Assembly: GCF_009930815.1 (NCBI RefSeq)
Contig: NZ_CP022222.1
Coordinates: 2,522,501-2,586,500 of the forward strand
DNA length: 64,000 nt
Direction of reading: 5' to 3'
Source of the DNA: Bradyrhizobium sp. CCBAU 051011
GTDB taxonomy: Bacteria; Pseudomonadota; Alphaproteobacteria; Rhizobiales; Xanthobacteraceae
Shown in pieces: positions 35,807 to 50,978 of the stretch. The notes below the pieces were generated by a model that saw only the letters and a list, made by a program, of their open reading frames with translations, did no database searches and was not told where the DNA came from. Each line of letters starts with the position of its first letter. Within the stretch, counting starts at the first letter, position 1. The translations under genes were made by a program, and so were the position numbers.

Positions 35807-36037
35807 TGCGGGCGGCAAGCTACAAAATTTCGCCGTCCGGTCCTATTCCCTTACCCCCATTGTCAGAGTTTTCCACGCCCCACGCCGCATAATTGATCAC
35901 GCCCGCATGCCGGGCATCCCGCCAGAGCACGACAGGAGCAGCATGCCTCAATTGACCTGCCGCGGGCACGCTCCTAAAACTCGCCAACAGTTCCGTAGGG
36001 CTCAACGCCTAAAGCACGGCATTCAGGGAGAGATTCT

Positions 36038-37246
36038 ATGCGTGATGTATTCATTTGCGATGCCGTCCGGACCCCGATCGGCCGTTTCGGCGGCTCGCTC
36101 GCCAAGGTGCGCGCCGACGATCTGGCCGCGACCCCGATCAAGGCGTTGATGGCGAAGCATCCCAATCTCGACTGGTCGCAGGTCGATGAGGTGTTTTTCG
36201 GCTGCGCGAACCAGGCCGGTGAGGACAACCGTAACGTTGCAAGGATGGCGCTGTTGCTCGCGGGCATGCCGGAATCGGTTCCCGGCCAGACCCTCAATCG
36301 CCTCTGCGCATCGGGCCTCGACGCGGTCGGCGCCGCGGGCCGGGCGATTCGATCAGGCGAAATCGATTTCGCGATTGCCGGCGGCGTCGAATCCATGACC
36401 CGCGCGCCGTTCGTGATGGGCAAGGCGCCGGAAGCGTTCGCGCGCTCGGCCGACATCTATGACACCACCATCGGCTGGCGCTTCATTAACCCCTTGATGA
36501 AGGCGCAGTATGGCGTCGATGCGATGCCGGAGACCGGCGAGAACGTTGCCGAGGAATTCCAGGTCTCGCGCGCCGATCAGGACGCGATGGCGATCCGCTC
36601 GCAGCAGCGCGCGGGCGCGGCGATCGCGGCGGGCTATTTCGCCGAAGAGATCACGCCGATCCAGGTGCCCGGCGGCAAGGCCGGTCCCATCACCGTCGAC
36701 AAGGACGAGCACCCGCGCCCTGAGACCACGCTCGAAGGTCTGGCCAAATTGAAGCCGATCGTGCGCAATCCCGGCACCGTGACCGCGGGCAATGCATCCG
36801 GCGTCAATGACGGCGCGGCGGCGATGATCCTCGCTTCCGAGGCTGCTGTGAAGAAGCACGGGCTGACGCCGCGGGCGCGCATCCTTGGGTTAGCCTCGGC
36901 CGCGGTGCCGCCGCGCATCATGGGCATCGGGCCGGTGCCGGCGACCAAGAAGCTGATGGAGCGGCTCGGCATCAAGATCTCCGACTTCGATTTGATCGAG
37001 CTCAATGAAGCCTTCGCCTCGCAGGGCATAGCCTGTCTGCGGCAACTCGGCGTCAAGGACGATGCCGACTTCGTCAATCCGCACGGCGGCGCGATCGCGC
37101 TCGGCCACCCGCTTGGCATGAGCGGCGCGCGGCTGGCGCTGACGGCAGTGCACGGCATGGAGAAGCGGGGCGGGAAGCTTGCCTTGGCAACCATGTGCGT
37201 CGGCGTCGGTCAGGGCGTTGCGGTCGCGATCGAAAAGATCAATTAA
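36038..37246 (+). CDS. pcaF: Beta-ketoadipyl-CoA thiolase
   Basis: A 402-residue thiolase that cleaves beta-ketoadipyl-CoA to succinyl-CoA and acetyl-CoA, the last step of protocatechuate catabolism. The nucleophile is C90 in NRLCASGLDAV; the general base lies in GGAIALGHPLGMSGAR and the second Cys in MCVGVGQG. The family cannot be separated from general acetyl-CoA acyltransferases by motif alone; the pcaHG genes directly downstream support the PcaF call. A GGGAGAG ribosome site precedes the ATG. It is the first gene of the long co-directional catabolic block. Confidence 0.88.
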   Translation: MRDVFICDAVRTPIGRFGGSLAKVRADDLAATPIKALMAKHPNLDWSQVDEVFFGCANQAGEDNRNVARMALLLAGMPESVPGQTLNRLCASGLDAVGAAGRAIRSGEIDFAIAGGVESMTRAPFVMGKAPEAFARSADIYDTTIGWRFINPLMKAQYGVDAMPETGENVAEEFQVSRADQDAMAIRSQQRAGAAIAAGYFAEEITPIQVPGGKAGPITVDKDEHPRPETTLEGLAKLKPIVRNPGTVTAGNASGVNDGAAAMILASEAAVKKHGLTPRARILGLASAAVPPRIMGIGPVPATKKLMERLGIKISDFDLIELNEAFASQGIACLRQLGVKDDADFVNPHGGAIALGHPLGMSGARLALTAVHGMEKRGGKLALATMCVGVGQGVAVAIEKIN

Positions 37247-37253
37247 GACAACG

Positions 37254-37304
37254 ATTTGGGAGGGCGAAAAATCGTCCTTTCCCAAATTAGTTATGTCATA
37301 TAAT
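37254..37304 (+). promoter_or_regulatory. Inverted repeat and -10-like box between pcaF and pcaH
   Basis: ATTTGGGA at 37254-37261 and TCCCAAAT at 37280-37287 form a perfect inverted repeat, with part of the 18-base spacer also able to pair. A consensus TATAAT lies at 37299-37304, about 50 bases before pcaH. The arrangement fits an attenuator or terminator for pcaF combined with a promoter for pcaHG, or an operator. No good -35 box is visible. Confidence 0.45.
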
Positions 37305-37352
37305 GATCCTGGCGGCGCGGCTGACCGGCGCAACGCGAGGGAGGAATTCGTC

Positions 37353-38054
37353 ATGACATTGGTCTATCCAGTGCAATCACTCGCAGCGCATCCGCCGCGG
37401 CTGTCTCCCGCCTACAAGAGCACGGTCAAGCGATCGCCCTCCAAGCCGTTGATTCCGATGCGGCACACGCTGTCGGAATTGACCGGGCCGGTCTACGGCC
37501 ACGAGACCGTGCGCGCGAACGATCACGATCTCACCGTTCAGGGCAAGGGTGAGCCGCTCGGCGAGCGCATCATCGTGCACGGCCACGTGCTGGATGAAGA
37601 CGGCCGCGGCGTGCCGAATACGCTGGTCGAACTCTGGCAGGCCAACGCCTGCGGCCGCTACGTCCACGTCGTCGATCAGCACCCGGCGCCGCTCGATCCG
37701 AATTTTACCGGCGCCGGCCGCACGCAGTCCGACGCGGAAGGTTATTACCGCTTCATCACCATCAAGCCCGGTGCCTATCCCTGGGGCAATCACCACAACG
37801 CCTGGCGTCCGGCGCACATCCACTTCTCGGTGTTCGGCCACTCCTTCGTCTCGCGGCTGGTGACGCAGATGTATTTCCCCGGCGATCCCCTGTTTCCGTT
37901 CGATCCGATCTTCAATTCGGTCACTGACGAAAAGGCGCGCAACCGGATGATCTCCGCGTTCGATCTGGAGAATACCAAGCCGGATTGGGCTCTGTGCTAC
38001 CGATTCAACATTGTGCTGCGCGGGCGCAACGCCACGCCGATGGAGAACAAGTAA
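37353..38054 (+). CDS. pcaH: Protocatechuate 3,4-dioxygenase, beta subunit
   Basis: A 233-residue intradiol dioxygenase subunit that carries the catalytic non-haem Fe(III). The four ligands are visible: Y103 in CGRYVH, Y142 in PGAYPW, and H155 and H157 in RPAHIHFS. It opens protocatechuate to 3-carboxy-cis,cis-muconate. The frame is open from 37179 but GGGAGGA just upstream fixes the ATG at 37353. The stop is immediately followed by the GTG of pcaG. No pcaB, pcaC or pcaD is in the window. Confidence 0.95.
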   Translation: MTLVYPVQSLAAHPPRLSPAYKSTVKRSPSKPLIPMRHTLSELTGPVYGHETVRANDHDLTVQGKGEPLGERIIVHGHVLDEDGRGVPNTLVELWQANACGRYVHVVDQHPAPLDPNFTGAGRTQSDAEGYYRFITIKPGAYPWGNHHNAWRPAHIHFSVFGHSFVSRLVTQMYFPGDPLFPFDPIFNSVTDEKARNRMISAFDLENTKPDWALCYRFNIVLRGRNATPMENK

Positions 38055-38660
38055 GTGTCCCAGACCAAGCCAGACGGGGTCACCCCGTCGCAGACCGTCG
38101 GTCCGTATTTCGCCTACGGCCTGACCTCGAACGGCAAGTACGACTGGAACGACGCCTTCAGCAACAACCTCGTCACGCCGGATACGTCGGGCGAACGCAT
38201 TCGTGTCGAGGGGATGGTGTTCGACGGCGACGGCGTGCCGATTGTCGATTGCATGCTGGAGATTTGGCAGGCGGACGCGCAAGGGCGCTTGTCCGATCCG
38301 CAGGACAAGCGGGCACTGCCGAATTCCACCTTCAAGGGGTTTGGCCGCGTCGGCACCGATGCGAAGGGCGCTTACGCCTTCGACACCATCAAGCCGGGCG
38401 TCGTGCCCGATCCCGACGGTAAGCCGCAGGCGCCGCATATCGTGCTCGCAGTGTTTGCGCGCGGCATGCTGCTGCACCTCTACTCCCGGATCTATTTCGA
38501 CGGTGAGGCCGCCAATGCCGCCGATCCGGTGCTGGCGCTGGTGCCGGCCGGTCGCCGCGCGACGCTGATCGCGACGCGGCAGCCGGGCAACGGCAACGCA
38601 GTGTATCGGTTCGACATCCATCTGCAGGGCGACAAAGAGACGGTGTTCTTCGACGTGTAG
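38055..38660 (+). CDS. pcaG: Protocatechuate 3,4-dioxygenase, alpha subunit
   Basis: A 201-residue partner of PcaH with the same fold but without the iron ligands, as normal for the alpha subunit. It shows TPSQTVGPYFAYGL near the N-terminus and PHIVLAVFARGMLLHLYSRIYF in the core. The start is GTG at 38055, touching the pcaH stop with no gap, so translation is coupled. Confidence 0.95.
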   Translation: MSQTKPDGVTPSQTVGPYFAYGLTSNGKYDWNDAFSNNLVTPDTSGERIRVEGMVFDGDGVPIVDCMLEIWQADAQGRLSDPQDKRALPNSTFKGFGRVGTDAKGAYAFDTIKPGVVPDPDGKPQAPHIVLAVFARGMLLHLYSRIYFDGEAANAADPVLALVPAGRRATLIATRQPGNGNAVYRFDIHLQGDKETVFFDV

Positions 38661-38708
38661 CCGCAATCGCATCGCGGACGAGGCTGAGCGACAGGCAAGA
38701 CTTCGCAC

Positions 38709-39653
38709 ATGATGACGCTTCGCCAGGTCGAGGTGATTCGCGCCGTGATGGTCACCGGCACGATCGGCGGCGCGGCGCGGCTTCTGAACGTGTCGGCCCC
38801 CGGCATCAGCCGGCTGGTGAAATATACCGAGAAATCCCTGGGCGTGCGCTTCTTCCAGCGTCAGAACGGGCGCTACTTCCCGACGCCGGAAGCCCGCAAC
38901 ATTTTCGAGCAGATCAACGGCGTCTACGAGAAGATGGATGATCTCACCGAGATCATCTCCAAGATCGGCCGCGGCGATCTGTCCGAACTGCGCATCGGCT
39001 CGGTGCCGAGCATCTCGCAGGTGATGGTGCCGCGCGCGATCGAGCGGGTTCGCCGCCGCTATCCCGAACTGCGGATCGACATCAACATCCTCAAGATCGA
39101 GGAGGCCGTCGACTATCTGTTGCTGGGCCGCGGCGATTGCGTCGCCATGAGCTACCGGCTCGAGCATCCCGGCCTCGATTTCCTGCCGCTGGCATCGGGT
39201 GAATTGTTCTGCATCGTGCCGGCGGGGCATGAACTGGCCGGTTGCAAGCAGGTCTCGGCCAAGGAGATCATCCGCTATCCGCTGATCGGCATCGACCCCA
39301 ACGATCCCTATGGGCGGATCATGGCGGAGATCTTCGCGCGCAACAAACTCGACTACGACATCACCATCCGCGCGCGTTTCGGCACCACGGTGTGCGCACT
39401 GGTCAAGGCGGGCCTTGGCATTGCCGTGATCGACCAGTTCACCGTCGCCCATGGCGGCTATCCCGGCGTCGAACTGTTGAAGATCGTCGAGCCGACCCGG
39501 TTCGACACCTACATCGCGGTGAAACGTGGTGCGCCGCTATCGCTGCACATCGAGCATTTCATCGAGTGCCTGCGCTCGGAAATGCGGGCAGTGGGGCCGG
39601 GCAAGGCGACGCCGCGAAAGGCCGATACCAGGCCCCGCAAAAAAATAACATGA
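38709..39653 (+). CDS. LysR-family transcriptional regulator
   Basis: A 314-residue LysR regulator. The winged helix-turn-helix covers residues 1-62 (GTIGGAARLLNVSAPGISRLVKYTEKSLG). A periplasmic-binding-type effector domain follows, and the C-terminus is basic (PRKADTRPRKK). It starts 48 bases after pcaG in the same direction, which is unusual since LysR genes are commonly divergent from their targets. By position it probably controls the pca and/or quinate genes, with protocatechuate, quinate or shikimate as candidate inducers. Two adjacent ATG codons could serve as start. Confidence 0.88.
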   Translation: MMTLRQVEVIRAVMVTGTIGGAARLLNVSAPGISRLVKYTEKSLGVRFFQRQNGRYFPTPEARNIFEQINGVYEKMDDLTEIISKIGRGDLSELRIGSVPSISQVMVPRAIERVRRRYPELRIDINILKIEEAVDYLLLGRGDCVAMSYRLEHPGLDFLPLASGELFCIVPAGHELAGCKQVSAKEIIRYPLIGIDPNDPYGRIMAEIFARNKLDYDITIRARFGTTVCALVKAGLGIAVIDQFTVAHGGYPGVELLKIVEPTRFDTYIAVKRGAPLSLHIEHFIECLRSEMRAVGPGKATPRKADTRPRKKIT

Positions 39654-39775
39654 CGTTATCTATCCGGCATAAATGGGTAATTGTGTTAGGTCGGCAAAGC
39701 GCTATCGTTCGGCCGGATCGGGGCGTATCCCGGGTCGCCCGCTGCCGTTAATGCATTACGCCCGATGACGAGATC

Positions 39776-40666
39776 ATGAGCCCTGCCGCCCGCCCCATCG
39801 CTCCGGCCGATCGCCGCTTCCTCACCGGCCTGATCGGCGCGCCGATCGCGCATTCGGCGTCGCCGGCAATGCATGAGCGAGCCGCCGAAGCGCTCGGCGC
39901 CCATTGCCACTACCAACTGATCGAGGTCGCAGGCGCCAGCCGCGAAGAGTTGAAGCTGCTGCTCGACGGCATGCGGCGGTTGGGTTTTGCGGGCGTCAAC
40001 GTTACCTTCCCCTACAAGGAAGCGGTGGTTTCCCTGCTCGATGAATTGTCGTCAGGCGCGCGCGCGATCGGCGCGGTCAATACGGTCGTGGTCCAGGACG
40101 GCCGGCTGATCGGACACAACACTGACACGACGGGATTTGCCCGGGCGATCACCGAACTCGTCCGCGATCCCGTGCAGAGCCGCGTTGCCGTGATCGGCGC
40201 GGGCGGTGTCGGCAAGGCGATCGGCTTCGCGTTGGCGGAGACCGGGGTTAGCGAGATCCGGGTCTTCGATACCGACGCCGCCAAGGCAGCGCAACTTGTC
40301 GGCCAGATCGCGAATCGTGGCAGCGTGAGGGTTGCCGGCAGCGTCGAGGAAGCCATGCGCGGCGTCACCGGGGTCGTCAACGGCTCGCCGGTCGGCATGT
40401 TGCCGAACCGCGGCACGCCTGTGCCGGATTCACTGCTGCACAAGGACATGTGGGTAGCGGATGCAGTCTACACGCCGCTCTGGACGCCCCTGTTGAATGC
40501 CGCCAAGGCGAAGGGCGCCGAGGTCATGACGGGGCGAGAGCTCGCGATCTATCAGGCCGCGGACGCCTTCGAGCTGTTTACGGGGCTGAAGCCATCGGCC
40601 GTCGAGATGGGAAATGCATTCGACGCCGTGATGGCCAAACGCTACGCTAAAGTGAACGCAGCTTAA
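39776..40666 (+). CDS. Quinate/shikimate dehydrogenase (AroE superfamily), likely catabolic and NAD-preferring
   Basis: A 296-residue AroE-superfamily enzyme. Substrate-site marks are HSASPAMHE near residue 26, VNVTFPYK with catalytic K81, and NTD with D117. The Rossmann loop is GAGGVGKA at 141-148, and the next strand ends RVFDTD, with Asp where biosynthetic AroE has NRT. That acidic residue favours NAD over NADP. Together with quiC downstream and pca genes upstream it fits oxidation of quinate or shikimate to the 3-dehydro acid. It is probably not the housekeeping aroE. It is 122 bases after lysR. Confidence 0.82.
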   Translation: MSPAARPIAPADRRFLTGLIGAPIAHSASPAMHERAAEALGAHCHYQLIEVAGASREELKLLLDGMRRLGFAGVNVTFPYKEAVVSLLDELSSGARAIGAVNTVVVQDGRLIGHNTDTTGFARAITELVRDPVQSRVAVIGAGGVGKAIGFALAETGVSEIRVFDTDAAKAAQLVGQIANRGSVRVAGSVEEAMRGVTGVVNGSPVGMLPNRGTPVPDSLLHKDMWVADAVYTPLWTPLLNAAKAKGAEVMTGRELAIYQAADAFELFTGLKPSAVEMGNAFDAVMAKRYAKVNAA

Positions 40667-40718
40667 CAACGCGGCCGGTCACAAGGTCGCGCATTGGATC
40701 AAAGAAGAGGGGATGGAA

Positions 40719-41855
40719 ATGAGATCTGGATTTTTCGCAGGACTCCTGCTTGCGACCGTGTCGGCCGCAGCCGCATTCGCGCAAGGCGCACCGATCAAGC
40801 TCGCCAATGTCGCCGAACTGTCCGGCGGCGGCGCCACCGTCGGCAACAACTGGAAAAACGGCATCGACCTCGCGATCGAGGAAATCAATGCCAAGGGCGG
40901 CCTGCTCGGCCGCAAGCTCGAAGTCACGCATGCGGATTCGCAGTCGAATCCCGGCGTGGCGCGCGCGCAGGTGCAAAAGGCGCTCGACAATGAGCCCTAC
41001 GTCCTGCTCGGGCCCGGCTATTCGGGCTCCGTCAAGGTCACCTCGCCGCTCGCTGCTGAAGCCGGTATCGCCCAGATCATGGGCGGCGAAGCTGCCGAAC
41101 TGACGCAAGGCGGCAACAAGTTCCTGTTCCGCACCTCGTTCGGCCAGCAGTCCTCGATGCCGAAGGTCGCCAAATACATCAACGATGAGCTGAAGGCGAA
41201 GTCGGTCGCGGTCGTCTGGGTCAACAACGATTTTGGCAAGGGCGGCCGCGACGTCATCACCAAGGAATTCGCCAAGTACAACATCAAGGTCGCGGCTGAC
41301 CTGTCCACGGAAGCGGGACAGGCCGACTTCGCCGCCGACGTCAGCAAGATCAAGGCCGCGGCGCCCGATGCCGTCTTCATCTACCTCAACGAGGAAGAAA
41401 GCGCGCGGATACTGAAGGAGCTGAAGCGCCAGGCGGTCACCGTGCCGCTGATGGGCGAGACCACGCTGGTCGGCCAGAAGGTTGTCGAACTCGCCGGCGA
41501 TGCCGCCAACGGCGCGCGCGGCCATGTCGGCCTCACCACCGATGCGCCGGTCGATCTGGTCAAGGCCTTCAGGGAGAAGTTCGTCAAGAAGTACAATTAC
41601 GTCCCCGATCATAACGGGCTGAAGGGCTATCTCGCGATCTACATGATCAAGGCGACCACCGATAAAATGGGCAAGGTCGATTCCAAGGCGTTCGCCGACA
41701 CACTTCACGGCCTCACCATCAAGGCTGCGAACGAGCCCGGCATCCTGATGGACGTTACCTTCGACGCGAAGGGCGACATCGACCGCCAGGGATTTTTGGT
41801 CGAGATCGTCGAGGGCAAGCAGGTCGTCAAGCAGGTGCTGCCGAAACTTAATTGA
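40719..41855 (+). CDS. livK: ABC transporter substrate-binding protein (LivK type)
   Basis: A 378-residue periplasmic binding protein of the branched-chain amino acid/aromatic acid class. The signal peptide ends AAAFAQGA near residue 22. The mature part opens IKLANVAELSGGGATVGNNWKNG. GAGGGG at 40707-40712 favours the ATG at 40719 over the one at 40713. It lies about 50 bases after the dehydrogenase gene and before livHMGF. Given the context the ligand is more likely quinate, shikimate, dehydroshikimate or an aromatic acid than leucine. Some such proteins bind aromatic acids in Rhodopseudomonas. Confidence 0.85.
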   Translation: MRSGFFAGLLLATVSAAAAFAQGAPIKLANVAELSGGGATVGNNWKNGIDLAIEEINAKGGLLGRKLEVTHADSQSNPGVARAQVQKALDNEPYVLLGPGYSGSVKVTSPLAAEAGIAQIMGGEAAELTQGGNKFLFRTSFGQQSSMPKVAKYINDELKAKSVAVVWVNNDFGKGGRDVITKEFAKYNIKVAADLSTEAGQADFAADVSKIKAAAPDAVFIYLNEEESARILKELKRQAVTVPLMGETTLVGQKVVELAGDAANGARGHVGLTTDAPVDLVKAFREKFVKKYNYVPDHNGLKGYLAIYMIKATTDKMGKVDSKAFADTLHGLTIKAANEPGILMDVTFDAKGDIDRQGFLVEIVEGKQVVKQVLPKLN

Positions 41856-41862
41856 ACCGCGC

Positions 41863-41890
41863 GGGCGCGTGCGATTGAGCGCGTGCGCCC
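41863..41890 (+). terminator. GC hairpin between livK and livH
   Basis: GGGCGC at 41863-41868 can pair with GCGCCC at 41885-41890, with more GC pairing possible inside. There is no T run. It may act as a transcript stabiliser or partial terminator that keeps the binding protein more abundant than the permeases. The evidence is weak. Confidence 0.3.
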
Positions 41891-41947
41891 CGCTCAGCAT
41901 AACGAAATCATTGGCGCCGTCCGTGCGTGACGGCTGAGGGGAGAAGC

Positions 41948-42823
41948 ATGTCGAATCTGCTCGATCTTCTCGTGGCAGGTCTTGCGACCGGGGCGATCTA
42001 TGCGCTTGTCGCGGTCGGGTTCACGCTGCTGTGGCAGACGTCGCAGACCATCAATTTCGCGCAGGGCGAGTTCGTGATGCTGCCGGCGTTCCTGATGCTG
42101 GCGGTGATGCATGCGGGCGCGCCGTTCTGGCTCGCCATCATTCTCGGCATCCTGCTGTCGCTGTTGCTGCTCGGGCTCGGTTTCAAGCTGCTGCTGGTCG
42201 ATCCGATGCTCCGGCACGGCGTGCTGCCGCTTGCGATTGCGACCATGGCGCTGGCGATCGGCATGAAGGAAGCGGTGAAGCAGTTCTTCAGCGCCGAGGC
42301 CTCGCCATTCCCCTCCATCGTGCCGGCCGGTGACGTCTCGATCCTCGGCCGCGTGGTGTCGCTGCAGAGCCTCGGCGTGCTCGCGCTCGCGATTGCCGTG
42401 GTGATCGGCCTGACCATGCTGCTGAACCGCACGTCGATCGGTCACCAGATGCAGGCGACCGCGCAGAACCCGACGGTTGCCCGCATCATTGGCGTGCCCG
42501 TCGAACGCATGATCCTGCTGACGTTCCTGATCAACGCATTTCTGGTGGCGTTGGCCTCGCTTCTGATCACGCCGATTTATCTCGCAAAATTCTCCTCCGG
42601 CGAGGTGCTGGGGCAGGCGGCGTTCATCGCGGCGATCGTCGGCGGCTTCAACCAGGTGCGCGGCGCGATTGCCGGCGGGCTGCTGATTGGCGTGGTCGAC
42701 AACCTGGCGGCGGCTTATGTGTCGACGCAGTATCGTGCCGCGGTGCCGCTGGTTCTTCTGATCGTCATCATCCTGTTCCGGCCGCAAGGCCTGCTCGGCC
42801 GGCCCGAGGAGCGCACGGTATGA
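41948..42823 (+). CDS. livH: ABC transporter permease (LivH type)
   Basis: A 291-residue inner-membrane permease with about eight helices. Family marks are GAIYALVAVGFTLLWQTSQTINFAQGEF near the N-terminus and the C-terminal GEVLGQAAFIAAIVGGFNQVRGAIAGG. GGGGAGAA upstream fixes the ATG at 41948 inside a slightly longer frame. The stop overlaps the livM start (ATGA). Confidence 0.93.
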   Translation: MSNLLDLLVAGLATGAIYALVAVGFTLLWQTSQTINFAQGEFVMLPAFLMLAVMHAGAPFWLAIILGILLSLLLLGLGFKLLLVDPMLRHGVLPLAIATMALAIGMKEAVKQFFSAEASPFPSIVPAGDVSILGRVVSLQSLGVLALAIAVVIGLTMLLNRTSIGHQMQATAQNPTVARIIGVPVERMILLTFLINAFLVALASLLITPIYLAKFSSGEVLGQAAFIAAIVGGFNQVRGAIAGGLLIGVVDNLAAAYVSTQYRAAVPLVLLIVIILFRPQGLLGRPEERTV

Positions 42824-43818
42824 CCATCAACGGAAAATATCTGCGCATTGCTCTCGGCATCGCCGTTATCGCGGCGCTGATCATCGTGCCGATGAACTTC
42901 AACCGTTACGGCCTCTATATCCTGAGTCAGTGGGCGGTGATGACGATCGCCGCGATGGGGCTCAATCTGACACTCGGATATGCCGGCCAGGTCTCGCTGG
43001 CGCAGGGCGCGTTCGTCGGCATCGGCGCCTATGCGGCGGCGATCATGACCACACAGGGCATGCCGCTGATTGCGGCGCTCGGCGTCGCGATCGTGCTGTG
43101 CTTTGCGATCGGCTGGATCCTCGGCTATCCCGCCCTGCGCGTCCAGCATCACTATCTTGCCTTCGTGACGCTGGCCTTTTCGACGCTCGCGTTCCTGGTG
43201 TTCCGCAACGAGGACTGGCTCACCAAGGGCATCTACGGCATATCAAGTATTCCGCGGCCGAACGTCCTGGGATTCGCCACCAACCGGCCGCTGCCGTTCT
43301 ATTATTTCTGCCTCGGCTCGCTCGGCGTCGTCTCGCTGGCGATGTGGTGGCTGATCCGCTCGCCCTGGGGCCGCGCCTTCGTGGCGCTGCGCGAAAACCC
43401 GGTGCGAGCGCTGTCGCTCGGCATCGACACAAGGCGCTATACGCTGATGGCGTTCGCGATCGGCTCAGCGCTTGGCGGTGTCGCGGGCACGCTCTATGCG
43501 CCGCTGACGCAATATATCGATCCGGTTCCGTTCAATCTCTCGCTATCGCTTGATCTCTTGATGATGGTGATCGTCGGCGGCTCCGGCTTCTTCTTCGGCC
43601 CGTTCCTCGGCGCCATGATCGCCGTGCTGCTGCCCGAATGGCTGCGCTTCACGCAGGGCTATTACCTGATGCTGTACGCGGTCGCCGTCATGCTGCTCCT
43701 GATCTATTCGCCGACCGGCATCCTCGGCATCCTCGACCGCTATCTGGCCGAGCGCCGCACCAAGGCGGCATCGGCACTGCGTGCGGTTACCAAATCCAGA
43801 TTGGAGACGGCGCCATGA
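42820..43818 (+). CDS. livM: ABC transporter permease (LivM type)
   Basis: A 332-residue inner-membrane permease with about nine helices. It has the LivM marks GLNLTLGYAGQVSLAQGAFVGIGAYAAA and, in the coupling loop, SPWGRAFVALRENPVRALSLGID. It pairs with LivH. Both ends overlap their neighbours by 4 bases, so livH, livM and livG are translationally coupled. Confidence 0.93.
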   Translation: MTINGKYLRIALGIAVIAALIIVPMNFNRYGLYILSQWAVMTIAAMGLNLTLGYAGQVSLAQGAFVGIGAYAAAIMTTQGMPLIAALGVAIVLCFAIGWILGYPALRVQHHYLAFVTLAFSTLAFLVFRNEDWLTKGIYGISSIPRPNVLGFATNRPLPFYYFCLGSLGVVSLAMWWLIRSPWGRAFVALRENPVRALSLGIDTRRYTLMAFAIGSALGGVAGTLYAPLTQYIDPVPFNLSLSLDLLMMVIVGGSGFFFGPFLGAMIAVLLPEWLRFTQGYYLMLYAVAVMLLLIYSPTGILGILDRYLAERRTKAASALRAVTKSRLETAP

Positions 43819-44558
43819 CCGCGGTCCTTGAAGTCAGCGATATCAAGAAGAGCTTTGGGGGCATCAAGGCCGTCGATGGCGTCAGCTTCGACGTGCAGGA
43901 GGGCGAGATCCTCGGGCTGATCGGGCCGAACGGCTGCGGCAAGTCCACGCTGTTCAACTGCATCCTCGGCCAATTGGCGCCGACCGGCGGCGAGGTGAGG
44001 GTCGACGGCAAAGTCGTCACCGGGGTGCGGCCATCCGAACTGAATCGTCTCGGCGTCAGCCGCACCTTCCAGCTCCTGCAGGTGTTTCCGAAGCTGTCGG
44101 TGCGGGAGAATCTGATCCTCGCCGGGCAGGAGCATCAGGGCAACATGATGTCGCGGCTGTTCGGCCCGTCGGATGCCGGATTATCAGCGGCAGCCGACCA
44201 GATGATCGGCTTCTTCAAGCTGGATCATCTCGCGACCGAGGCCGCCGGCGGCCTGTCCTATGGCCAGCAAAAGCTGCTCGATGCCGCCATGGCGTTCATG
44301 GGCGGGCCGCGGCTGGTGTTGCTCGACGAACCCGCCGGCGGCGTCAACCTCACCATGCTCGGCGACCTCAAAGAGCGACTGGCGGCGATCAACCGCGAGA
44401 AGCGCGCCACCTTCGTCGTCATCGAGCACAACATGGAATTCGTGATGTCGCTGTGCACGCGCGTGATGGTGATGGCGGAAGGCAAGCTCTTGGCGATGGG
44501 CACACCCGCCGAAGTCCGCGCCAATCCCGCCGTCATCGAAGCCTATCTCGGCCACTAG
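43815..44558 (+). CDS. livG: ABC transporter ATP-binding protein (LivG type)
   Basis: A 247-residue ATPase with Walker A GPNGCGKST near residue 37, signature LSYGQQKLLD, Walker B LVLLDEPAGGVN and switch VIEHNMEFV. The PAGGVN form is typical of LivG. The ATG at 43815 overlaps the livM stop. The frame is open further upstream but that part lies inside livM in another phase. Confidence 0.92.
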   Translation: MTAVLEVSDIKKSFGGIKAVDGVSFDVQEGEILGLIGPNGCGKSTLFNCILGQLAPTGGEVRVDGKVVTGVRPSELNRLGVSRTFQLLQVFPKLSVRENLILAGQEHQGNMMSRLFGPSDAGLSAAADQMIGFFKLDHLATEAAGGLSYGQQKLLDAAMAFMGGPRLVLLDEPAGGVNLTMLGDLKERLAAINREKRATFVVIEHNMEFVMSLCTRVMVMAEGKLLAMGTPAEVRANPAVIEAYLGH

Positions 44559-44570
44559 AGGGATCGACCA

Positions 44571-45308
44571 ATGAGCGATGCCATCCTCGATGTTCAAGGC
44601 CTCGTCGGCGGTTACGGCAAGATGACGATCCTCAACGGCACCAGCTTTTCAGTGCCGGCAGGCTCCATCACCACCGTCATCGGGCCTAACGGCGCGGGAA
44701 AATCCACCGTTTTCAAGGCGATCTTCGGCCTGCTCAAGCTGCGCGAAGGCAAGGTCGTCTTCAAAGGGCGCGACGTCACCGGGCTGAGCCAGCGCGAACT
44801 GCTCAATGCAGGCATCTGCTACGTGCCGCAGGGGCGCAACATCTTCCCCGAGCTGTCGGTGCGCGACAACATCCAGCTCGGCGCCGTCGTTGCGCGTGAC
44901 ATCACCGATCTGCCGGCCAGAATCGAGGCGGCGCTCGATAAATTTCCGGTGCTGCGCAAGAAGGCGACGCAGCAGGCATCCACGCTGTCGGGCGGCGAGC
45001 AGAAGCAGCTCGAAGTCGTCCGCGGCCTCCTGCTCAATCCGCAACTGGTGCTGATCGACGAGCCGTCGATCGGGCTCTCGCCGCTGATGGTGCAGCAGAC
45101 CTTCAACATTCTGAAGAAATTGCGCGACCGCGGCGTGTCGATCCTGATGATCGAGCAGAACGCCCGCTCGGCGCTGGAGATTTCCGACTACGGCATTGTG
45201 CTCGAACTGGGACAGACCCGCCTCGTCGACAAGGCCGACCGCGTGCTGAACGATCCCCGCATCGGGCAATTATTCCTGGGCGGCGCCATGACGGAGACGG
45301 CCGCATGA
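44571..45308 (+). CDS. livF: ABC transporter ATP-binding protein (LivF type)
   Basis: A 245-residue ATPase with Walker A GPNGAGKST near residue 38, the LivF mark YVPQGRNIFPELSV, signature LSGGEQKQLEVVRGL and Walker B LVLIDEPSIGLSP. It begins 12 bases after livG with GAGGGA as ribosome site, and its stop overlaps the quiC start (ATGA). The transporter is thus directly coupled in translation to a quinate-pathway enzyme, which supports a shared substrate. Confidence 0.93.
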   Translation: MSDAILDVQGLVGGYGKMTILNGTSFSVPAGSITTVIGPNGAGKSTVFKAIFGLLKLREGKVVFKGRDVTGLSQRELLNAGICYVPQGRNIFPELSVRDNIQLGAVVARDITDLPARIEAALDKFPVLRKKATQQASTLSGGEQKQLEVVRGLLLNPQLVLIDEPSIGLSPLMVQQTFNILKKLRDRGVSILMIEQNARSALEISDYGIVLELGQTRLVDKADRVLNDPRIGQLFLGGAMTETAA

Positions 45309-47176
45309 ACAAGCGCTCGATCGCAACCGTTTCGCTCAGCGGCGCGCTCGATGAAAAGCTGCGCGCGATCGCCGAAGCCGGGTTCGATGCCGTCGAGATT
45401 TTCGAGAACGATCTGCTGTCGTTCAACGGCAGCCCGCGCGACGTCGGCCGGATGTGCCGGGATCTCGGGCTGTCGATCTGCGCCTTCCAGCCGTTCCGCG
45501 ACTTCGAGGGCATGCCGGAGCCGCAACGCGCCCGCAACTTCGCGCGTGCCGAGCGCAAGTTCGACCTGATGCGAGAATTGCAGACCGATTTGATGCTGAT
45601 TTGCAGCAACATCTCGCCGGCTTCGCTTGGCGGTATCGATCGCGCCGCCGCCGATTTCCACGAGCTGGGCGAGCGGGCCGCCGCGCGGGGCTTGCGCGTC
45701 GGCTATGAGGCGCTCGCCTGGGGGCTTCATGTCAACGACTATCGCGATGCTTGGGAGATCGTGCGGCGCGCCGACCACAAATCGATCGGCGTCATCCTCG
45801 ACAGCTTTCACGCGCTGGCGCCGTCGTTCCCGACGCTGCCGATCCAGTCGATCCCTGCCGACAAGATCTTTCTGGTGCAACTGGCTGATGCGCCGAAACT
45901 CGGCCTCGACGTGCTGTCCTGGAGCCGGCATTTCCGCTGCTTCCCGGGGCAGGGCGATCTGCCGGTCGCGCGTTTCGTGCAAGACGTGCTGGCCACCAGC
46001 TATGCGGGCCCGCTATCGCTGGAAATATTCAACGACCAGTTTCGCGCCGGCTCCGCGGTACGCACCGCGACCGATGGACTGCGCTCGCTGATCCTGCTCG
46101 AGGATGACGTTCGCGCTGCGGCGTCGAGCGGTCCGGCAGGGCCCTTGCCACCGAAAGCACACAGCCGTGGCGTCGGCTTCATCGAGTTCGCCGTCAGCGA
46201 CGAAAAAGCCAAAAGCCTCGCCGCGATGTTCGGCCAGCTCGGCTTCCGCAAGACTGGCGCGCATCGCAGCAAGGACGTCGAACGCTGGTCGCAGGGCCAT
46301 ATTGACCTCGTGATCAATTGCGAACCCGACGGCTTTGCGCATTCGCACTTTGTCGCGCACGGCCCCGGCGTCTGCGCCATCGCTGTTGACGTGGATGATG
46401 CCGGCAGGACCATGGCACGGGCGGAAGCCTTGCAGGCGCGGACCTTCTATCAGCCGGTCGGGCCGGGTGAGCTGGAGATTCCGGCGATCCGCGGCGTCGG
46501 CGGCAGCCTGCTGTATTTCCTCGAAGAAGCCGGCAAGAACTGGGACCTCGATTTCGAATCGCTGCGCAGCGATGCGGCCAGCGACCGGCTCGATGCCGTC
46601 GATCATATCTCGCAGTCGATGCCCTATGACGAGATGCTGTCATGGCTGTTGTTCTACACCGGCATTCTCGATCTGGAGCGCCTGCCGCAGATGGAGATCG
46701 CGGACCCGGTCGGGCTGGTGCAGAGCCAGGCGCTGATCAATGGCAATCGGGGTCTGCGCATGGTGCTCAACGGCTCGTCAGCCACCCGCACGCTGTCGGC
46801 CCGCTTCATCCACGAATTCTTCGGTTCCGGCGTGCAGCATGTCGCGTTCTCCTGCGGCGATATTTTCGCGGCGATCGCCGACATGCGTGCGCGCGGTGCG
46901 GATTTCCTCAAGATCCCTGACAATTACTACGACGACATCGAAGCCAAGTACGGCCTCGATGCCGCCACCATGGCCGCGCTGCGCGACAACCAGATTCTCT
47001 ACGACCGCGAAGGCGACGGCGAATTCTTTCAGGTCTATACCCATGCGTTCGACGAGCGGTTTTTCTTCGAGATCGTCGAGCGCCGCAACTATCACGGCTT
47101 CGGCGCCGCCAACGCCGCGATCAGGCTCGCGGCGCAGACCCGCGAATCGCGGCCGCTGACCATGCCCAAGGCGTGA
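45305..47176 (+). CDS. quiC: 3-dehydroshikimate dehydratase fused to an HPPD-like domain
   Basis: A 623-residue two-domain protein of the QuiC1 type. The N-terminal TIM barrel (about 1-265) has the metal ligands E135, D166, Q192 and E240, with H169 in LDSFHA; it dehydrates 3-dehydroshikimate to protocatechuate. The C-terminal half (about 290-600) is a vicinal-oxygen-chelate fold like 4-hydroxyphenylpyruvate dioxygenase, and keeps His in AVDHI, His in GVQHVAF and Glu in FFFEIVERRN. The iron triad therefore looks intact, but the natural activity of this half is unknown. The start overlaps livF. Confidence 0.92.
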   Translation: MNKRSIATVSLSGALDEKLRAIAEAGFDAVEIFENDLLSFNGSPRDVGRMCRDLGLSICAFQPFRDFEGMPEPQRARNFARAERKFDLMRELQTDLMLICSNISPASLGGIDRAAADFHELGERAAARGLRVGYEALAWGLHVNDYRDAWEIVRRADHKSIGVILDSFHALAPSFPTLPIQSIPADKIFLVQLADAPKLGLDVLSWSRHFRCFPGQGDLPVARFVQDVLATSYAGPLSLEIFNDQFRAGSAVRTATDGLRSLILLEDDVRAAASSGPAGPLPPKAHSRGVGFIEFAVSDEKAKSLAAMFGQLGFRKTGAHRSKDVERWSQGHIDLVINCEPDGFAHSHFVAHGPGVCAIAVDVDDAGRTMARAEALQARTFYQPVGPGELEIPAIRGVGGSLLYFLEEAGKNWDLDFESLRSDAASDRLDAVDHISQSMPYDEMLSWLLFYTGILDLERLPQMEIADPVGLVQSQALINGNRGLRMVLNGSSATRTLSARFIHEFFGSGVQHVAFSCGDIFAAIADMRARGADFLKIPDNYYDDIEAKYGLDAATMAALRDNQILYDREGDGEFFQVYTHAFDERFFFEIVERRNYHGFGAANAAIRLAAQTRESRPLTMPKA

Positions 47177-47218
47177 CTATCGGAATGGAAAACAAGAACA
47201 CTGAGGGGAGGCGAGGCG

Positions 47219-49048
47219 ATGTCGATCATGAAGGGGAAGGTCGTTGGCGCAACATTGCTGCTCGCGGCCTGCGGTTATCTCTCGCCAGCATCGGCCGATA
47301 CGCTTTCCTGCGATGACGGTATCAAGACGGCGTTTCGCCCGGACGCCGACACGAAGGTCGTTGCAGTTCGCCTGGTGAAGAAGGGCGAGGAGCTGAAGGC
47401 AGTTGACGCGCCGCAGCCGATTACGGCTGCCGCTGATCTGTGCCTGGTCAAGCTATTGGTCGGCCCCGGCGCCACGGCGGAGAAGGACAGGAACGCGCGC
47501 TCCTGGTCCGAAGGTATCGGGATCGAGGTCTGGCTGCCGACGCAGGCCAATTGGAATGAGCGTATCCGCAATTACGGCGGCGGCGGATGGGTCGGCGGCG
47601 GTCATCGCTATGCGGACAAGATCGGCAGCAAGGTGCCGGCGATCGTCAATGCCAATATCGGATACGCCTCAGGCACCACGGACGCAGGCCAGCCCTGGTA
47701 TCAGGATGGCTCGTTCGCATTTCTGTCCGACGGCAAGGTCAACGTGGAAGCGCTGCGCGATTTCTCGGTGCGCGCCATGGTGGAGCAGGCCGTCAAGACC
47801 AAGGCGCTGGTCAACCTCTACTACGGCAAGGCGCCGAAATATGCCTACTACGACGGCCATTCGCAGGGTGGCCGGCAAGGCCTGAAACTCGTGCAGGAGT
47901 ATCCCGAGCTTTACGATGGCTACATGATCGCGCAGCCGGCGCTGAATATCGCGAAATTCGGGACGGCAGGGCTCTATCCGCAGATCGTGATGAAAACCGA
48001 ACTCGGCTTCACGTCGGCGGACAAACCGAAGGCCACAGCCTTCGCCGCCAAGGTTGCCGCCGCCAACAAGCGCGCGGTGGCCGCCTGCGATAAGGCCGGC
48101 CTCGGGTTCCTGCTCGATCCCTTTGCCTGCGATTACAATCCCGCACGCGATGCCGACATGCTGTGCGCAGGCGAGGCCGGCGAGGGCGTCACCGGCAATA
48201 ATGCCGATGGTGCGGCCTGCATGAGTCTCAAGGAGGCGAACGCGCTGAACCGGATCTGGTACGGCGCCACCAGCGATGGCAGTTTCGATGCCGCGCCGAG
48301 CGCCGAGGCGCGGTCCGGCAAATCGCTCGGCAAGAACCAGCTCTGGTGGACGTTCACCAAAAGCACCGGCATCGCTAACCTGATCACCAGCGCCTCCTCC
48401 TACGGCGTCGCTCTGGCGCTGCAGGATGTCAGCTACGCTCCTGACGCCAGCACGTCGTCAGGCGAACCCATCACGAACGCCTCGACCAATATGCGCAATA
48501 AATGGCTGGAGCTTGATTACGCCGGGCTCGCCGATGCCGTGAACAAGGGCGTCGCGCTGCAGCCGACGTTGTTCAGCGACCTCATCACCGACAAGGCGGA
48601 CCTCGCGAAACTGCGCGATCTCGGCCGCAAGGTCATCGTCTACACGGGCCTCGTCGACGATGCGATCCCGCCGGCCGGCAACATCAATTATCACGAGCGC
48701 GTGGTGGCGGCGATGGGCGGGCATGCCGAGGTGCAGAAGTTCATGCGGATGTATCTCGTGCCGGGATCGGCGCACTCTTCGCAAGGGAGGGCCTATACCG
48801 TCGGCGGCAAGAACGACAGCGTGCCGTTGCCGAAGCTGCCGGGCAATGCCAATCAGACACCGACACGCGAGCAGGACCAATTCTTCACGGCTCTGATCGA
48901 CTGGGTCGAGAAGGGCACCGCGCCCGGCGAAATCCTGCTGACGTCGCGTGACAACAGCCTGAGCTATCCCGTCTGCGTCTATCCGCTGCGGACGAACTGG
49001 AACGGCAATGGAGATGCAAAGCAGGCCTCGAGTTATAGCTGCCGGTAG
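47219..49048 (+). CDS. Tannase/feruloyl esterase family protein, exported
   Basis: A 609-residue alpha/beta hydrolase of the tannase/feruloyl esterase family, expected to release gallate, hydroxycinnamate or similar acids from plant esters outside the cytoplasm. The N-terminus is a signal sequence with LLAAC (Cys18), which could be a lipobox; cleavage after ASA at residue 26 is the alternative. Catalytic candidates are S215 in GHSQGGRQ, D480 in GLVDDAI and H519 in PGSAHSSQG. The family usually has Cys next to both the Ser and the His, joined by a disulfide; here both are replaced (His and Ser). It is 42 bases after quiC with a strong ribosome site. Confidence 0.88.
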   Translation: MSIMKGKVVGATLLLAACGYLSPASADTLSCDDGIKTAFRPDADTKVVAVRLVKKGEELKAVDAPQPITAAADLCLVKLLVGPGATAEKDRNARSWSEGIGIEVWLPTQANWNERIRNYGGGGWVGGGHRYADKIGSKVPAIVNANIGYASGTTDAGQPWYQDGSFAFLSDGKVNVEALRDFSVRAMVEQAVKTKALVNLYYGKAPKYAYYDGHSQGGRQGLKLVQEYPELYDGYMIAQPALNIAKFGTAGLYPQIVMKTELGFTSADKPKATAFAAKVAAANKRAVAACDKAGLGFLLDPFACDYNPARDADMLCAGEAGEGVTGNNADGAACMSLKEANALNRIWYGATSDGSFDAAPSAEARSGKSLGKNQLWWTFTKSTGIANLITSASSYGVALALQDVSYAPDASTSSGEPITNASTNMRNKWLELDYAGLADAVNKGVALQPTLFSDLITDKADLAKLRDLGRKVIVYTGLVDDAIPPAGNINYHERVVAAMGGHAEVQKFMRMYLVPGSAHSSQGRAYTVGGKNDSVPLPKLPGNANQTPTREQDQFFTALIDWVEKGTAPGEILLTSRDNSLSYPVCVYPLRTNWNGNGDAKQASSYSCR

Positions 49049-49054
49049 CTGCCC

Positions 49055-50767
49055 TTGCGCCGCCCACGATTATCCGAGATCTCGCCCGGGTACGACGTCG
49101 TCGTGATCGGCGCCGGAGCCGCCGGCATGTCGGCTGCGCTTTTTTCCGCCATTCGCGGCGCGAAAACGCTGCTGGTCGAGAAGACCGGCTTTGTCGGCGG
49201 CACCTCCGCATGGTCGGCCGGATCGATCTGGATACCCAATACGCGCCATGCATCGGCCGCCGGCGCGATCGATAGCGTGGCGAACGTCGAAAAATATCTG
49301 CAGCAGATCATTGGAAACCATGCCGACGTTGCGCTGCGCGCCGCCTTCCTGAAGGCGGGTCCCACGGCAGTCGAGGTTCTGGAAAATCATTCCGAAGTGA
49401 AGTTGCGGGCCTATGCTCGTCATCCCGACTATCGCTCCGAGCTTGAGGGCGCGGCGTTCGCCGGGCGCGCGCTGGAGCCGTTGCCATTCGACGGGCGTTT
49501 GCTTGGCGAGGCGTTCCCGCTGGTTCGACCGCCGCTCCCGGAGTTCACGTTGCTTGGCGGAATGATGGTCGACAGGACGGATATCGGTCATCTGTTGTCG
49601 TCAACGAGGTCCGTCAAATCGTTGTGGCACTCTACCAAGCTCTTTGCGCGCTACGCACGCGACAAAGCGAGCCATGGCAGGGGCACACGGCTCGTAATGG
49701 GGAATGCGCTGGTCGGCCGGCTACTGTATTCATTGATGCGTCAGGGTGTAGATATCCTGACAGGCGCATCGCTTGCGAAGATCATCCGGAAACCTGACGG
49801 TGCCGTTACGGCGGCCGGTTTGATCTCGGAGGGAGTATCGCGCGAGATCGTCGTCAACGGCGCGCTGATTCTGGCGGGAGGCGGTTTCAACCGCCATGCC
49901 GAGCGACGCCTCGCCGCGCTTGGAACCGAGTCCGGATGGTCGTCCGTCGCGCCGGGCTCGAGCGGCGATGCGCAGGACAAGGCCCTTGAGATCGGTGCGC
50001 GCCTCAGCGAGCGCGATGTCAGCCCTGCATTCTGGGCGCCCGCATCGATCCGGCGGCGGCGCGACGGATCACAAGCGGTCTTTCCGCACTTCGTGCTCGA
50101 CCGTGCCAAACCGGGGACGCTGGTTGTCGACAGCAACGGGCGTCGGTTCGTCAATGAAGCGATCTCCTATCACCAGTTTGCGCTGGAGATGTTGGCAAAG
50201 GGAAAGTCGGCCATTCCGGCGTTTCTGATCGCGGATGCGGTTTCAGTCCGAAAATATGGTCTTGGCATGGTGCGTCCTAGTGGCTGGGGCGCCAGAGCTG
50301 CTGTCGCCGACGGCTATCTCAGCGTCGCTGACACCATCGAGCAGCTAGCGCTACGACTGCACATCGATCCCGGTCAATTGCGCGCGACGGTCGACAGGAT
50401 GAATCTGCATGCGCAAACCGGTCTTGATCCCGAATTCGGCAGGGGAAGCACGGTGTATCAGAATCACAACGGTGATGCGTCTGCGGGCGGGGCCAATCCC
50501 AACCTTGGCCGCATCGCGTCGGCCCCCTTCTATGCGGTCCGGCTTTATCCTTCCGATATCGGTACCTCCTGCGGACTTGTTACGGACGAGCTTGCCCGCG
50601 TTCTAGATGCCGGCAATCGGCCCATTGCTGGCCTCTACGCTTGCGGAAATGACATGCAGTCGATCATGGGTGGAACCTACCCCGGACCGGGGATCACGCT
50701 CGGGCCAGCGATCGCGTTTGCCTATATCGCGGCGTCGGACGCCGCTCGGCGCTTGGGCGTCGAATGA
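49055..50767 (+). CDS. FAD-dependent oxidoreductase (fumarate reductase/3-ketosteroid dehydrogenase type)
   Basis: A 570-residue flavoprotein. The dinucleotide fold is VVVIGAGAAGMSAALFSA near residues 15-32, followed by LLVEK. Later marks are GGTSAWSAGSIWIPN, GALILAGGGFNRH, and a C-terminal GLYACGNDMQSIMGGTYPGPGITLGPA that closes the flavin site. This resembles the KstD/FCSD-like group that dehydrogenates or reduces C-C bonds. The start must be the TTG at 49055, because no ATG or GTG precedes the flavin motif. It begins 6 bases after the tannase stop, so it probably acts on a product of that esterase. The substrate is unknown. Confidence 0.82.
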   Translation: MRRPRLSEISPGYDVVVIGAGAAGMSAALFSAIRGAKTLLVEKTGFVGGTSAWSAGSIWIPNTRHASAAGAIDSVANVEKYLQQIIGNHADVALRAAFLKAGPTAVEVLENHSEVKLRAYARHPDYRSELEGAAFAGRALEPLPFDGRLLGEAFPLVRPPLPEFTLLGGMMVDRTDIGHLLSSTRSVKSLWHSTKLFARYARDKASHGRGTRLVMGNALVGRLLYSLMRQGVDILTGASLAKIIRKPDGAVTAAGLISEGVSREIVVNGALILAGGGFNRHAERRLAALGTESGWSSVAPGSSGDAQDKALEIGARLSERDVSPAFWAPASIRRRRDGSQAVFPHFVLDRAKPGTLVVDSNGRRFVNEAISYHQFALEMLAKGKSAIPAFLIADAVSVRKYGLGMVRPSGWGARAAVADGYLSVADTIEQLALRLHIDPGQLRATVDRMNLHAQTGLDPEFGRGSTVYQNHNGDASAGGANPNLGRIASAPFYAVRLYPSDIGTSCGLVTDELARVLDAGNRPIAGLYACGNDMQSIMGGTYPGPGITLGPAIAFAYIAASDAARRLGVE

Positions 50768-50926: not shown

Positions 50927-50978
50927 GCCGGCGGGTTAGGATCGTGTCGTCGGTAGCGGCCTCAGTACCGGATTGAAC

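What the first reader, a model, noticed from the sequence alone, without database searches (positions are those of the whole stretch)
36038..50767. Co-directional plant polyphenol and quinate catabolic island with a built-in ABC importer
Seen: pcaF, pcaHG, lysR, a quinate/shikimate dehydrogenase with an NAD-type loop, livKHMGF, quiC, tannase and an FAD enzyme, all on one strand over 15 kb; livF and quiC overlap by ATGA. Known: these enzymes connect quinate/shikimate to protocatechuate and ring cleavage. Inference: the Liv-type transporter imports quinate, shikimate or an ester-released acid, not amino acids, and the tannase feeds it. This gives a full route from plant ester to ring fission, suited to a soil or plant-associated rhizobium.
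Basis: partly seen in the sequence, partly recalled or inferred. Interest (0 to 1): 0.75.

Follow-up and report, generated by a model that had tools for sequence, protein, structure and literature searches.

The report
Bacterial quinate/shikimate uptake and breakdown island
A soil Bradyrhizobium carries a gene island that probably imports plant shikimate or quinate with its own ATP-driven pump and turns it into protocatechuate; relatives of the pump often sit beside shikimate-type enzyme genes in other bacteria, but what it carries has not been tested.

Summary
In detail: thirteen co-directional genes at 36038-50767, livF/quiC sharing ATGA. Comparative evidence favours the central inference. 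The LivK-type protein falls in its own supported group, apart from a LivK-type protein of the same genome (28%) and the probable S. meliloti PcaM (24%). Genes for shikimate dehydrogenase, QuiC, dehydroquinate dehydratase or the flavoenzyme lie within 10.5 kb of it in 24/24 close, 26/40 intermediate and 0/21 distant relatives. Best reading: an ABC importer of shikimate and/or quinate, coupled to an NAD-type dehydrogenase and QuiC, giving protocatechuate. Ligand binding is untested.

The "single complete route" is not supported. Two transcription units are likely. pcaBCD, pcaI-like genes and dehydroquinate dehydratases lie megabases away. Esterase and flavoenzyme are variable cargo: 10/16 and 4/16 close relatives. 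The esterase lacks the family's paired cysteines and no LigB-family gene was found, so gallotannin use is unlikely.

The flavoenzyme is the most novel lead. It keeps four ketosteroid-dehydrogenase catalytic residues, and many but not all relatives examined lie near shikimate-dehydrogenase or dehydroquinase genes. It may desaturate a shikimate-derived ketone.

The parts
36038..37246 (+). pcaF, 3-oxoadipyl-CoA thiolase
   Evidence: TIGR02430 693.6 bits, cut-off 597
35952..35980 (+). probable pcaF promoter: TTGACC, 17 nt, TAAAAC
   Evidence: both hexamers identical in 11 of 11 aligned sequences, the window and 10 of 12 relatives; not listed by the consensus scan
37353..38054 (+). pcaH, protocatechuate 3,4-dioxygenase beta (start inferred from the domain match; longest frame opens earlier)
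   Evidence: TIGR02422 378.5 bits, cut-off 296.4
38055..38660 (+). pcaG, protocatechuate 3,4-dioxygenase alpha
   Evidence: TIGR02423 266.1 bits, cut-off 126.25
38709..39653 (+). LysR-type regulator, not PcaQ by cut-off
   Evidence: PF00126 and PF03466; TIGR02424 62.8 bits against 303.8
39678..39688 (+). conserved palindromic site TAATTGTGTTA, candidate LysR box of the sdh-liv-quiC operon
   Evidence: 25 of 26 aligned lysR-sdh gaps; 19 of 19 further genus loci with the gap in view; one match in the window at up to 3 mismatches of a 15-base version
39776..40666 (+). NAD-type shikimate (quinate) dehydrogenase
   Evidence: NF001319 394.9 bits, cut-off 252; best PDB 3jyo; NAD-type loop
40713..41855 (+). 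livK-like solute-binding protein, proposed shikimate/quinate binder
   Evidence: PF13458; own group 97/96 in the tree; context statistics
41927..42823 (+). livH-like permease (start probably 41948)
   Evidence: PF02653
42820..43818 (+). livM-like permease
   Evidence: PF02653
43815..44558 (+). livG-like ATPase (inferred start; the longest frame opens at 43638)
   Evidence: PF00005 and PF12399
44571..45308 (+). livF-like ATPase, overlaps quiC by ATGA
   Evidence: PF00005
45305..47176 (+). quiC, two-domain 3-dehydroshikimate dehydratase
   Evidence: NF042435 713 bits, cut-off 1200; 10/10 active-site residues; the only full-length match in the genome
47219..49048 (+). tannase/feruloyl-esterase-family hydrolase, probably exported, accessory gene
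   Evidence: PF07519 224.6 bits; triad-like motifs GHSQGG, VDD, GSAHS; signal-like N-terminus; the Cys beside Ser and His is absent
49055..50767 (+). KstD-like FAD dehydrogenase, accessory gene
   Evidence: NF009477 812.9 bits, cut-off 758; Y126, Y372, Y542, G546 match the KstD1 catalytic set
50973..51902 (+). EamA-type transporter downstream (borderline part of the island)
   Evidence: PF00892 101.4 bits; 81% identical to the gene after the esterase in L009

Best explanation
A Bradyrhizobium hydroaromatic-acid utilisation locus. Core module: a LysR regulator probably acting at the TAATTGTGTTA site, an NAD-type shikimate/quinate dehydrogenase, a dedicated LivKHMGF-type ABC importer and QuiC. 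Proposed mechanism: the periplasmic LivK-like protein binds shikimate and/or quinate (inferred); the ABC complex imports it (inferred); the dehydrogenase oxidises shikimate to 3-dehydroshikimate (family-level assignment); QuiC dehydrates that to protocatechuate (active site intact, activity not shown); PcaHG next door cleaves the ring and PcaF does the last thiolysis (family-level assignment), with PcaB, C, D and I encoded elsewhere. Quinate would additionally need a dehydroquinate dehydratase from elsewhere in the genome. The esterase perhaps releases quinate or shikimate from plant esters outside the cytoplasm; the FAD enzyme perhaps desaturates a ketone made from them (both inferred, lower confidence).
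For: Gene content. SBP context: shikimate-dehydrogenase, QuiC, AroQ or FAD genes near 24/24, 26/40 and 0/21 relatives by falling identity, Fisher 1.9e-7 for the last two groups. Operon lysR-livKHMGF-SDH-quiC without pca genes beside it in S. americanum; SDH-liv or SDH-liv-quiC arrangements in Rhizobium. SBP group support 97/96, apart from LivK and PcaM. SBP at E <= 1e-100 in 93 of 146 genus genomes. Conserved site in the lysR-sdh gap. The own genome has two PF08501 (shikimate dehydrogenase) genes; one is this gene, ending 46 bp before livK.
Against: No binding or growth data. 14 of 40 intermediate relatives showed none of the four marker genes: 5 of those contigs are under 11 kb, but nine are longer, among them Bosea (L041, L063), Paenochrobactrum (L052), Falsochrobactrum (L055), Microvirga (L053) and L034. 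One of the 14 (L002) instead has pcaHG, and 5 of the 40 have pcaH nearby, so some members may carry protocatechuate. The distant group comes mostly from unrelated phyla and is an imperfect control; the close group is mostly one genus and not independent. QuiC and the transporter proteins fall below NCBIfam equivalog cut-offs. One of the four LIVBP ligand positions compared, Ser79 (recalled), is conserved, and the best PDB sequence hits are amino-acid binders.
Confidence: 0.65

Rival explanations
1. The importer carries protocatechuate or 4-hydroxybenzoate, the products feeding PcaHG, like the PcaMNVWX system of Sinorhizobium.
For: pcaHG lie next to the module in the window and in 12 of 12 close relatives with that side in view; five of 40 intermediate relatives lie near pcaH; PcaM is also of the HAAT type (PMC4495286, passages).
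Against: SBP is 24% identical to the probable PcaM of L176. In 0 of 24 close relatives from genome contigs was pcaH found within 10.5 kb, while 24 of 24 had the dehydrogenase. No pca gene is annotated beside the operon of L001.
Confidence: 0.13
2. The importer carries the intact ester (for example chlorogenate or another quinate/shikimate conjugate) or another polyhydroxylated alicyclic acid, not the free acids.
For: Some members lie beside KstD-like FAD enzymes, SDR-type enzymes and NIPSNAP proteins rather than QuiC, suggesting substrates beyond shikimate and quinate.
Against: The esterase appears exported (signal-like N-terminus), so hydrolysis would precede uptake; an esterase hit was seen near 2 of 24 close relatives, one of them weak (25% identity, L020).
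Confidence: 0.14
3. An ordinary branched-chain or other amino-acid importer that happens to sit among aromatic genes.
For: Family-level similarity; best PDB sequence hits are amino-acid binders; LIVBP Ser79 (recalled) is conserved as Ser104.
Against: Scores far below LivK-type and LivH cut-offs (126.5/477, 104.7/379). Three other LIVBP ligand positions (recalled: Thr102, Tyr202, Glu226) align with Glu126, Asn226, Thr250. The genome has a separate operon of the LivHMGF-LivK kind. Group-specific context.
Confidence: 0.05

Closest known systems
LivJ/LivK-LivHMGF (HAAT) amino-acid ABC importers
   Same: Five-component architecture and Pfam families
   Different: SBP 28% identical to a LivK-type protein of the same genome; below the Liv equivalog/subfamily cut-offs; linked to shikimate-dehydrogenase and QuiC genes
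PcaMNVWX protocatechuate importer of Sinorhizobium/Rhizobium (PMC4495286, passages read)
   Same: HAAT-type ABC importer in rhizobia for a plant-derived ring acid, under a LysR regulator
   Different: 24% SBP identity; proposed substrate is upstream of protocatechuate; regulator not PcaQ by cut-off
CouPSTU of Rhodopseudomonas palustris (PMC3610893, search listing only)
   Same: Bacterial uptake system for plant-derived aromatic acids
   Different: Substrates are phenylpropenoids; no homology comparison made here
Quinate/shikimate operons such as C. glutamicum qsuABCD, and P. putida QuiC1 (PMC7442255, passages)
   Same: Two-domain 3-dehydroshikimate dehydratase of quinate/shikimate use
   Different: An ABC importer sits in the operon here, and no dehydroquinate dehydratase is in it (composition of qsuABCD recalled)
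3-ketosteroid delta1-dehydrogenases and ChcC1/ChcC2 (NCBIfam NF053676, NF053677)
   Same: FAD_binding_2 fold; the KstD1 catalytic Tyr/Tyr/Tyr/Gly set is conserved
   Different: Below their equivalog cut-offs; many relatives lie near shikimate/quinate genes

Membership tests
HAAT-type ABC importer | Peripla_BP_6 SBP, two BPD_transp_2 permeases, two ATPases, one with the BCA_ABC_TP_C tail | tested here: met
LivK/LivH branched-chain amino-acid importer | NCBIfam scores above cut-off | tested here: not met
   126.5/477 and 104.7/379
PcaMNVWX | SBP orthologous to PcaM | tested here: not met
   23.6% identity, outside the group in the tree (long branch, place unsure); PcaM identified by position on pSymB, not by a label
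PcaMNVWX | PcaQ-type regulator | tested here: not met
   TIGR02424 62.8/303.8
Protocatechuate 3,4-dioxygenase | PcaH and PcaG above cut-off | tested here: met
NAD+ quinate/shikimate dehydrogenase (NF010631) | score above cut-off | tested here: not met
   221.3/515; general shikimate dehydrogenase NF001319 met
NAD+ quinate/shikimate dehydrogenase (NF010631) | acidic NAD-type loop after the second strand | tested here: met
   VFDTD aligned to VADLD, against VNRT in the second AroE
QuiC (NF042435) | score above cut-off | tested here: not met
   713/1200
QuiC (NF042435) | two domains and dehydratase active site | tested here: met
Tannase/feruloyl esterase | PF07519 above cut-off | tested here: met
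   224.6/29.8
Tannase/feruloyl esterase | Cys pair next to catalytic Ser and His (CS-D-HC, name recalled) | tested here: not met
   GHSQGG and GSAHSS against GCSTGG and GMAHCS in 6g21
KstD/ChcC2 | catalytic Tyr119, Tyr318, Tyr487, Gly491 (numbers recalled; a 20-residue offset to the 4c3x chain inferred) | tested here: met
   alignment to 4c3x, positions
KstD/ChcC2 | equivalog cut-offs | tested here: not met
   418.5/789 (NF009478), 397.4/900 (NF053677)
Shikimate/quinate importer | binds and transports shikimate or quinate | not testable with these tools
   needs binding and uptake assays

The most novel reading that the evidence does not exclude
Two linked novelties. (1) A group of HAAT-type ABC importers dedicated to shikimate/quinate, present in 93 of 146 sampled genomes of the genus and with relatives in Alpha- and Betaproteobacteria. 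(2) A KstD-like FAD dehydrogenase family that desaturates shikimate/quinate-derived ring ketones, a flavin-dependent aromatising branch of hydroaromatic catabolism beside or instead of QuiC: in eight of eight Bradyrhizobium loci with the enzyme at 53-56% identity the set is Liv-type ABC genes, shikimate-dehydrogenase-like gene, two KstD-like enzymes, NIPSNAP and TIM barrel, with no clear QuiC gene (one weak 30% match in L142).
Probability: 0.3. Interest if true: 0.72.

Novelty: new variant of a known kind. Interest (0 to 1): 0.5.

Why it matters
Quinate and shikimate are common plant acids (general knowledge). Among the titles and abstract starts listed by my searches (30 of 95 papers shown, 17), the transporters for them were mostly fungal permeases or shikimate transporters in engineered strains, and none named an ABC importer. 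A binding-protein-dependent importer would let soil and root bacteria use traces of these acids and would give a testable substrate for a widespread group whose permeases are annotated as branched-chain amino-acid transporters (for example). The flavoenzyme context could reveal an unrecognised route from alicyclic acids to aromatics.

Tried and rejected
Tried: (1) that the island is one operon; unlikely, because pcaF and sdh have separate conserved upstream elements. (2) That the Liv operon beside pcaBCD in the own genome (L148) is the PcaM system; rejected, its better relatives that I opened are LivK-type proteins in LivHMGF operons (H76 and H81) or beside acyl-CoA genes (H90), not pca loci. 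(3) That the FAD enzyme makes gallate for a LigB-type dioxygenase; weakened, no PF02900 match in the genome. (4) That the FAD-context link is universal; it is not: 0 of 4 genus loci at 47-52% identity (L144-L147) and L118, L121, L122 at 46-47% show no shikimate-type gene. (5) Solved relatives of the SBP: distant only. (6) Papers: ten searches, one largely off-topic. Structure prediction was not run. In one search one locus of 86 (L026, about 77%) fell between identity bins and was dropped; it has sdh and quiC. The script that picked SBP frames for one search failed because the annotated gap in L175 has no single open frame there.

The esterase search across the genus did not complete and not repeated. 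A consensus promoter scan did not list the pcaF promoter and found no excess of promoters (3 found, 3.5 expected).

Full report
WHAT IS THERE. The window lies in a single 9.10 Mb contig. Thirteen co-directional genes run from 36038 to 50767: pcaF, pcaH, pcaG, lysR, shikimate dehydrogenase, livK, livH, livM, livG, livF, quiC, tannase-family esterase, FAD dehydrogenase. Divergent mutS lies upstream. An EamA-type transporter and an EmrAB-type efflux pair lie downstream. The base composition does not stand out: 0.63-0.64 G+C against 0.58-0.67 across the window. No tRNA was found.

ENZYMES. PcaF, PcaH, PcaG and the dehydrogenase pass curated cut-offs. The dehydrogenase has an NAD-type loop where the genome's only other PF08501 protein has a VNRT loop. 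QuiC keeps 10 of 10 active-site residues listed for QuiC1/QsuB in PMC7442255 (passages read; checked, offset +1), although it scores under the NCBIfam cut-off. It is the only full-length match in the genome. The core enzymes suffice for shikimate to protocatechuate. Quinate needs dehydroquinate dehydratase, for which the window showed no match; two type II copies lie at 6.65 and 8.84 Mb. pcaB, pcaC and pcaD lie together at 5.88 Mb (PcaC just under its cut-off, 152.1/155.7) and pcaI-like genes at 3.39 and 7.59 Mb.

THE IMPORTER. The best-scoring of the 36 other SBP matches in its own genome is 29% identical; a 56-residue fragment reaches 41%. All solved relatives are distant. In a tree of 36 rows it groups with 24 relatives (97/96), apart from a LivK-type protein of the same genome, the probable PcaM and nine distant SBPs (the long PcaM branch makes its place unsure). 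I counted marker genes within 10.5 kb of the SBP in 85 of 86 loci; one fell between identity bins. At least one of SDH, QuiC, AroQ or FAD was found in 24 of 24 at 77% identity or more, 26 of 40 at 39-65%, and 0 of 21 at 31% or less; SDH alone in 24, 23 and 0. The 24 are nearly all Bradyrhizobium by title, so they are not independent. The 40 span Alpha- and Betaproteobacteria. The 21 are mostly from other phyla, which makes them a weak control. Other operon forms include lysR-livKHMGF-SDH-quiC on an S. americanum plasmid, lysR-SDH-liv with quiC about 1 kb on in Rhizobium, and FAD, SDH and liv genes together in Rhizobium sp. ACO-34A. A Massilia SBP has no permeases nearby.

REGULATION. The lysR-sdh gap holds TAATTGTGTTA (39678-39688). 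It is exact in 25 of 26 aligned gaps, although most of the gap is poorly conserved, and in 19 of 19 further genus loci where the gap is in view (some may be the same strains). It occurs once in the window. pcaF has its own conserved TTGACC-17-TAAAAC element in 11 of 11 aligned sequences. I infer two units: pcaFHG (perhaps with lysR), and sdh-liv-quiC with any downstream cargo.

ISLAND BUILD-UP. The SBP was found in 93 of 146 genus genomes at E <= 1e-100, 16 of them besides the window at 94% identity or more. I read all 16. Twelve (L152-L163) have pcaFHG, lysR, sdh, liv and quiC together, 12 of 12; the esterase is in 6 of these 12 and the FAD enzyme in none. The other four (L128-L131) have sdh, liv, quiC, esterase, FAD enzyme and a TIM-barrel gene, with the pca side out of view. 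So the esterase is in 10 of 16 and the FAD enzyme in 4 of 16. In the window the only TIM-barrel match is the QuiC N-terminus. At 91-92% SBP identity (L164-L166) the esterase follows livF directly and no quiC was seen. pcaFHG is not seen near the 24 close genome-contig loci (0 of 24 for pcaH), so it belongs to the window's own subgroup; esterase and FAD enzyme are variable cargo.

ESTERASE. It has a signal-like N-terminus, triad-like motifs and no cysteines beside Ser and His. The genome's other PF07519 gene scores far higher (548.7 against 224.8 bits). No PF02900 gene was found (the control rang in 4 of 14 genomes). Gallotannin use is therefore unlikely; release of quinate or shikimate from plant esters is the best guess, from context alone.

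FAD ENZYME. It passes NF009477 (an unnamed FAD oxidoreductase) and not the ketosteroid or ChcC models, yet all four KstD1 catalytic positions (recalled numbers) are conserved: Y126, Y372, Y542, G546. Of 27 genus genomes with a match I read 20 regions. L128-L131 are window-type. L132-L135 have pcaF, fad, aroQ, a 219-aa-type protein and an intradiol-dioxygenase match (catechol type by Pfam in L132, the one scanned). L136-L143 (8 of 8) have Liv-type ABC genes, an SDH-like gene, fad, a second KstD-like gene, NIPSNAP and TIM barrel. L144-L147 (0 of 4) have none of the shikimate-type genes. Of 20 listed plasmid hits I opened 11, leaving out near-duplicates, one seen already (L005) and the three lowest. 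The five at 47.6% or more (L097-L101) all lie near SDH or aroQ; of six at 45-48%, two have SDH, one has only a TIM barrel and a weak match, three have none. KstD chemistry applied to 3-dehydroshikimate would give gallate; that is chemistry reasoning, and the missing LigB-type gene speaks against gallate as a growth intermediate here.

LITERATURE. PMC4495286 (passages) describes rhizobial PcaMNVWX. PMC3223731 (passages) had quinic and shikimic acid in an R. palustris SBP ligand library and says they are reported not to support its growth; the passages seen name no binder for them. PMC4318275 (passages) says, citing Parke 1985, that quinate and shikimate support rhizobial growth. No title or abstract start on an ABC importer for quinate or shikimate appeared in the listings of searches, which cover only open-licence PMC papers; the listing showed no flavin route from dehydroshikimate.

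VERDICT. A real, conserved catabolic locus. The complete-route and tannase claims are too strong. New variant of a known kind; the flavoenzyme is the most novel lead.

Noticed in passing
   Followed up: partly
L132-L135: mutS-pcaF-fad-aroQ-219-aa-type protein-intradiol-dioxygenase match in about 4.4-5.3 Mb genomes of the same genus: the mutS/pcaF side recurs as a site for hydroaromatic genes.
   Followed up: partly
L164-L166: Module with aroQ, a 219-aa-type protein and a TIM-barrel gene (dctP in two of the three) but no quiC seen: the single-domain TIM barrel might replace QuiC.
   Followed up: no
G000 8843174-8844320 (L104 8172-9319): Second dehydroquinate dehydratase followed by a 219-aa protein without any Pfam match; homologues of this pair recur beside quinate-type genes in other loci.
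   Followed up: partly
G000 1730302-1736336: The genome's other, higher-scoring tannase-family gene lies about 4 kb from another LivK-type SBP match.
   Followed up: no
62418-63758 +: Rieske oxygenase with a LigXa-type C-terminal domain at the window edge.
   Followed up: no
27592-30383 +: NMT1-type binding protein followed by a protein with an ABC ATPase domain, a different importer type.
   Followed up: no
L176 11733-13622: S. meliloti p_2 has a TIM-barrel gene of QuiC length (annotated 'TIM barrel protein') next to pcaQ-pcaDCHG; no SDH is annotated directly beside it.
   Followed up: no
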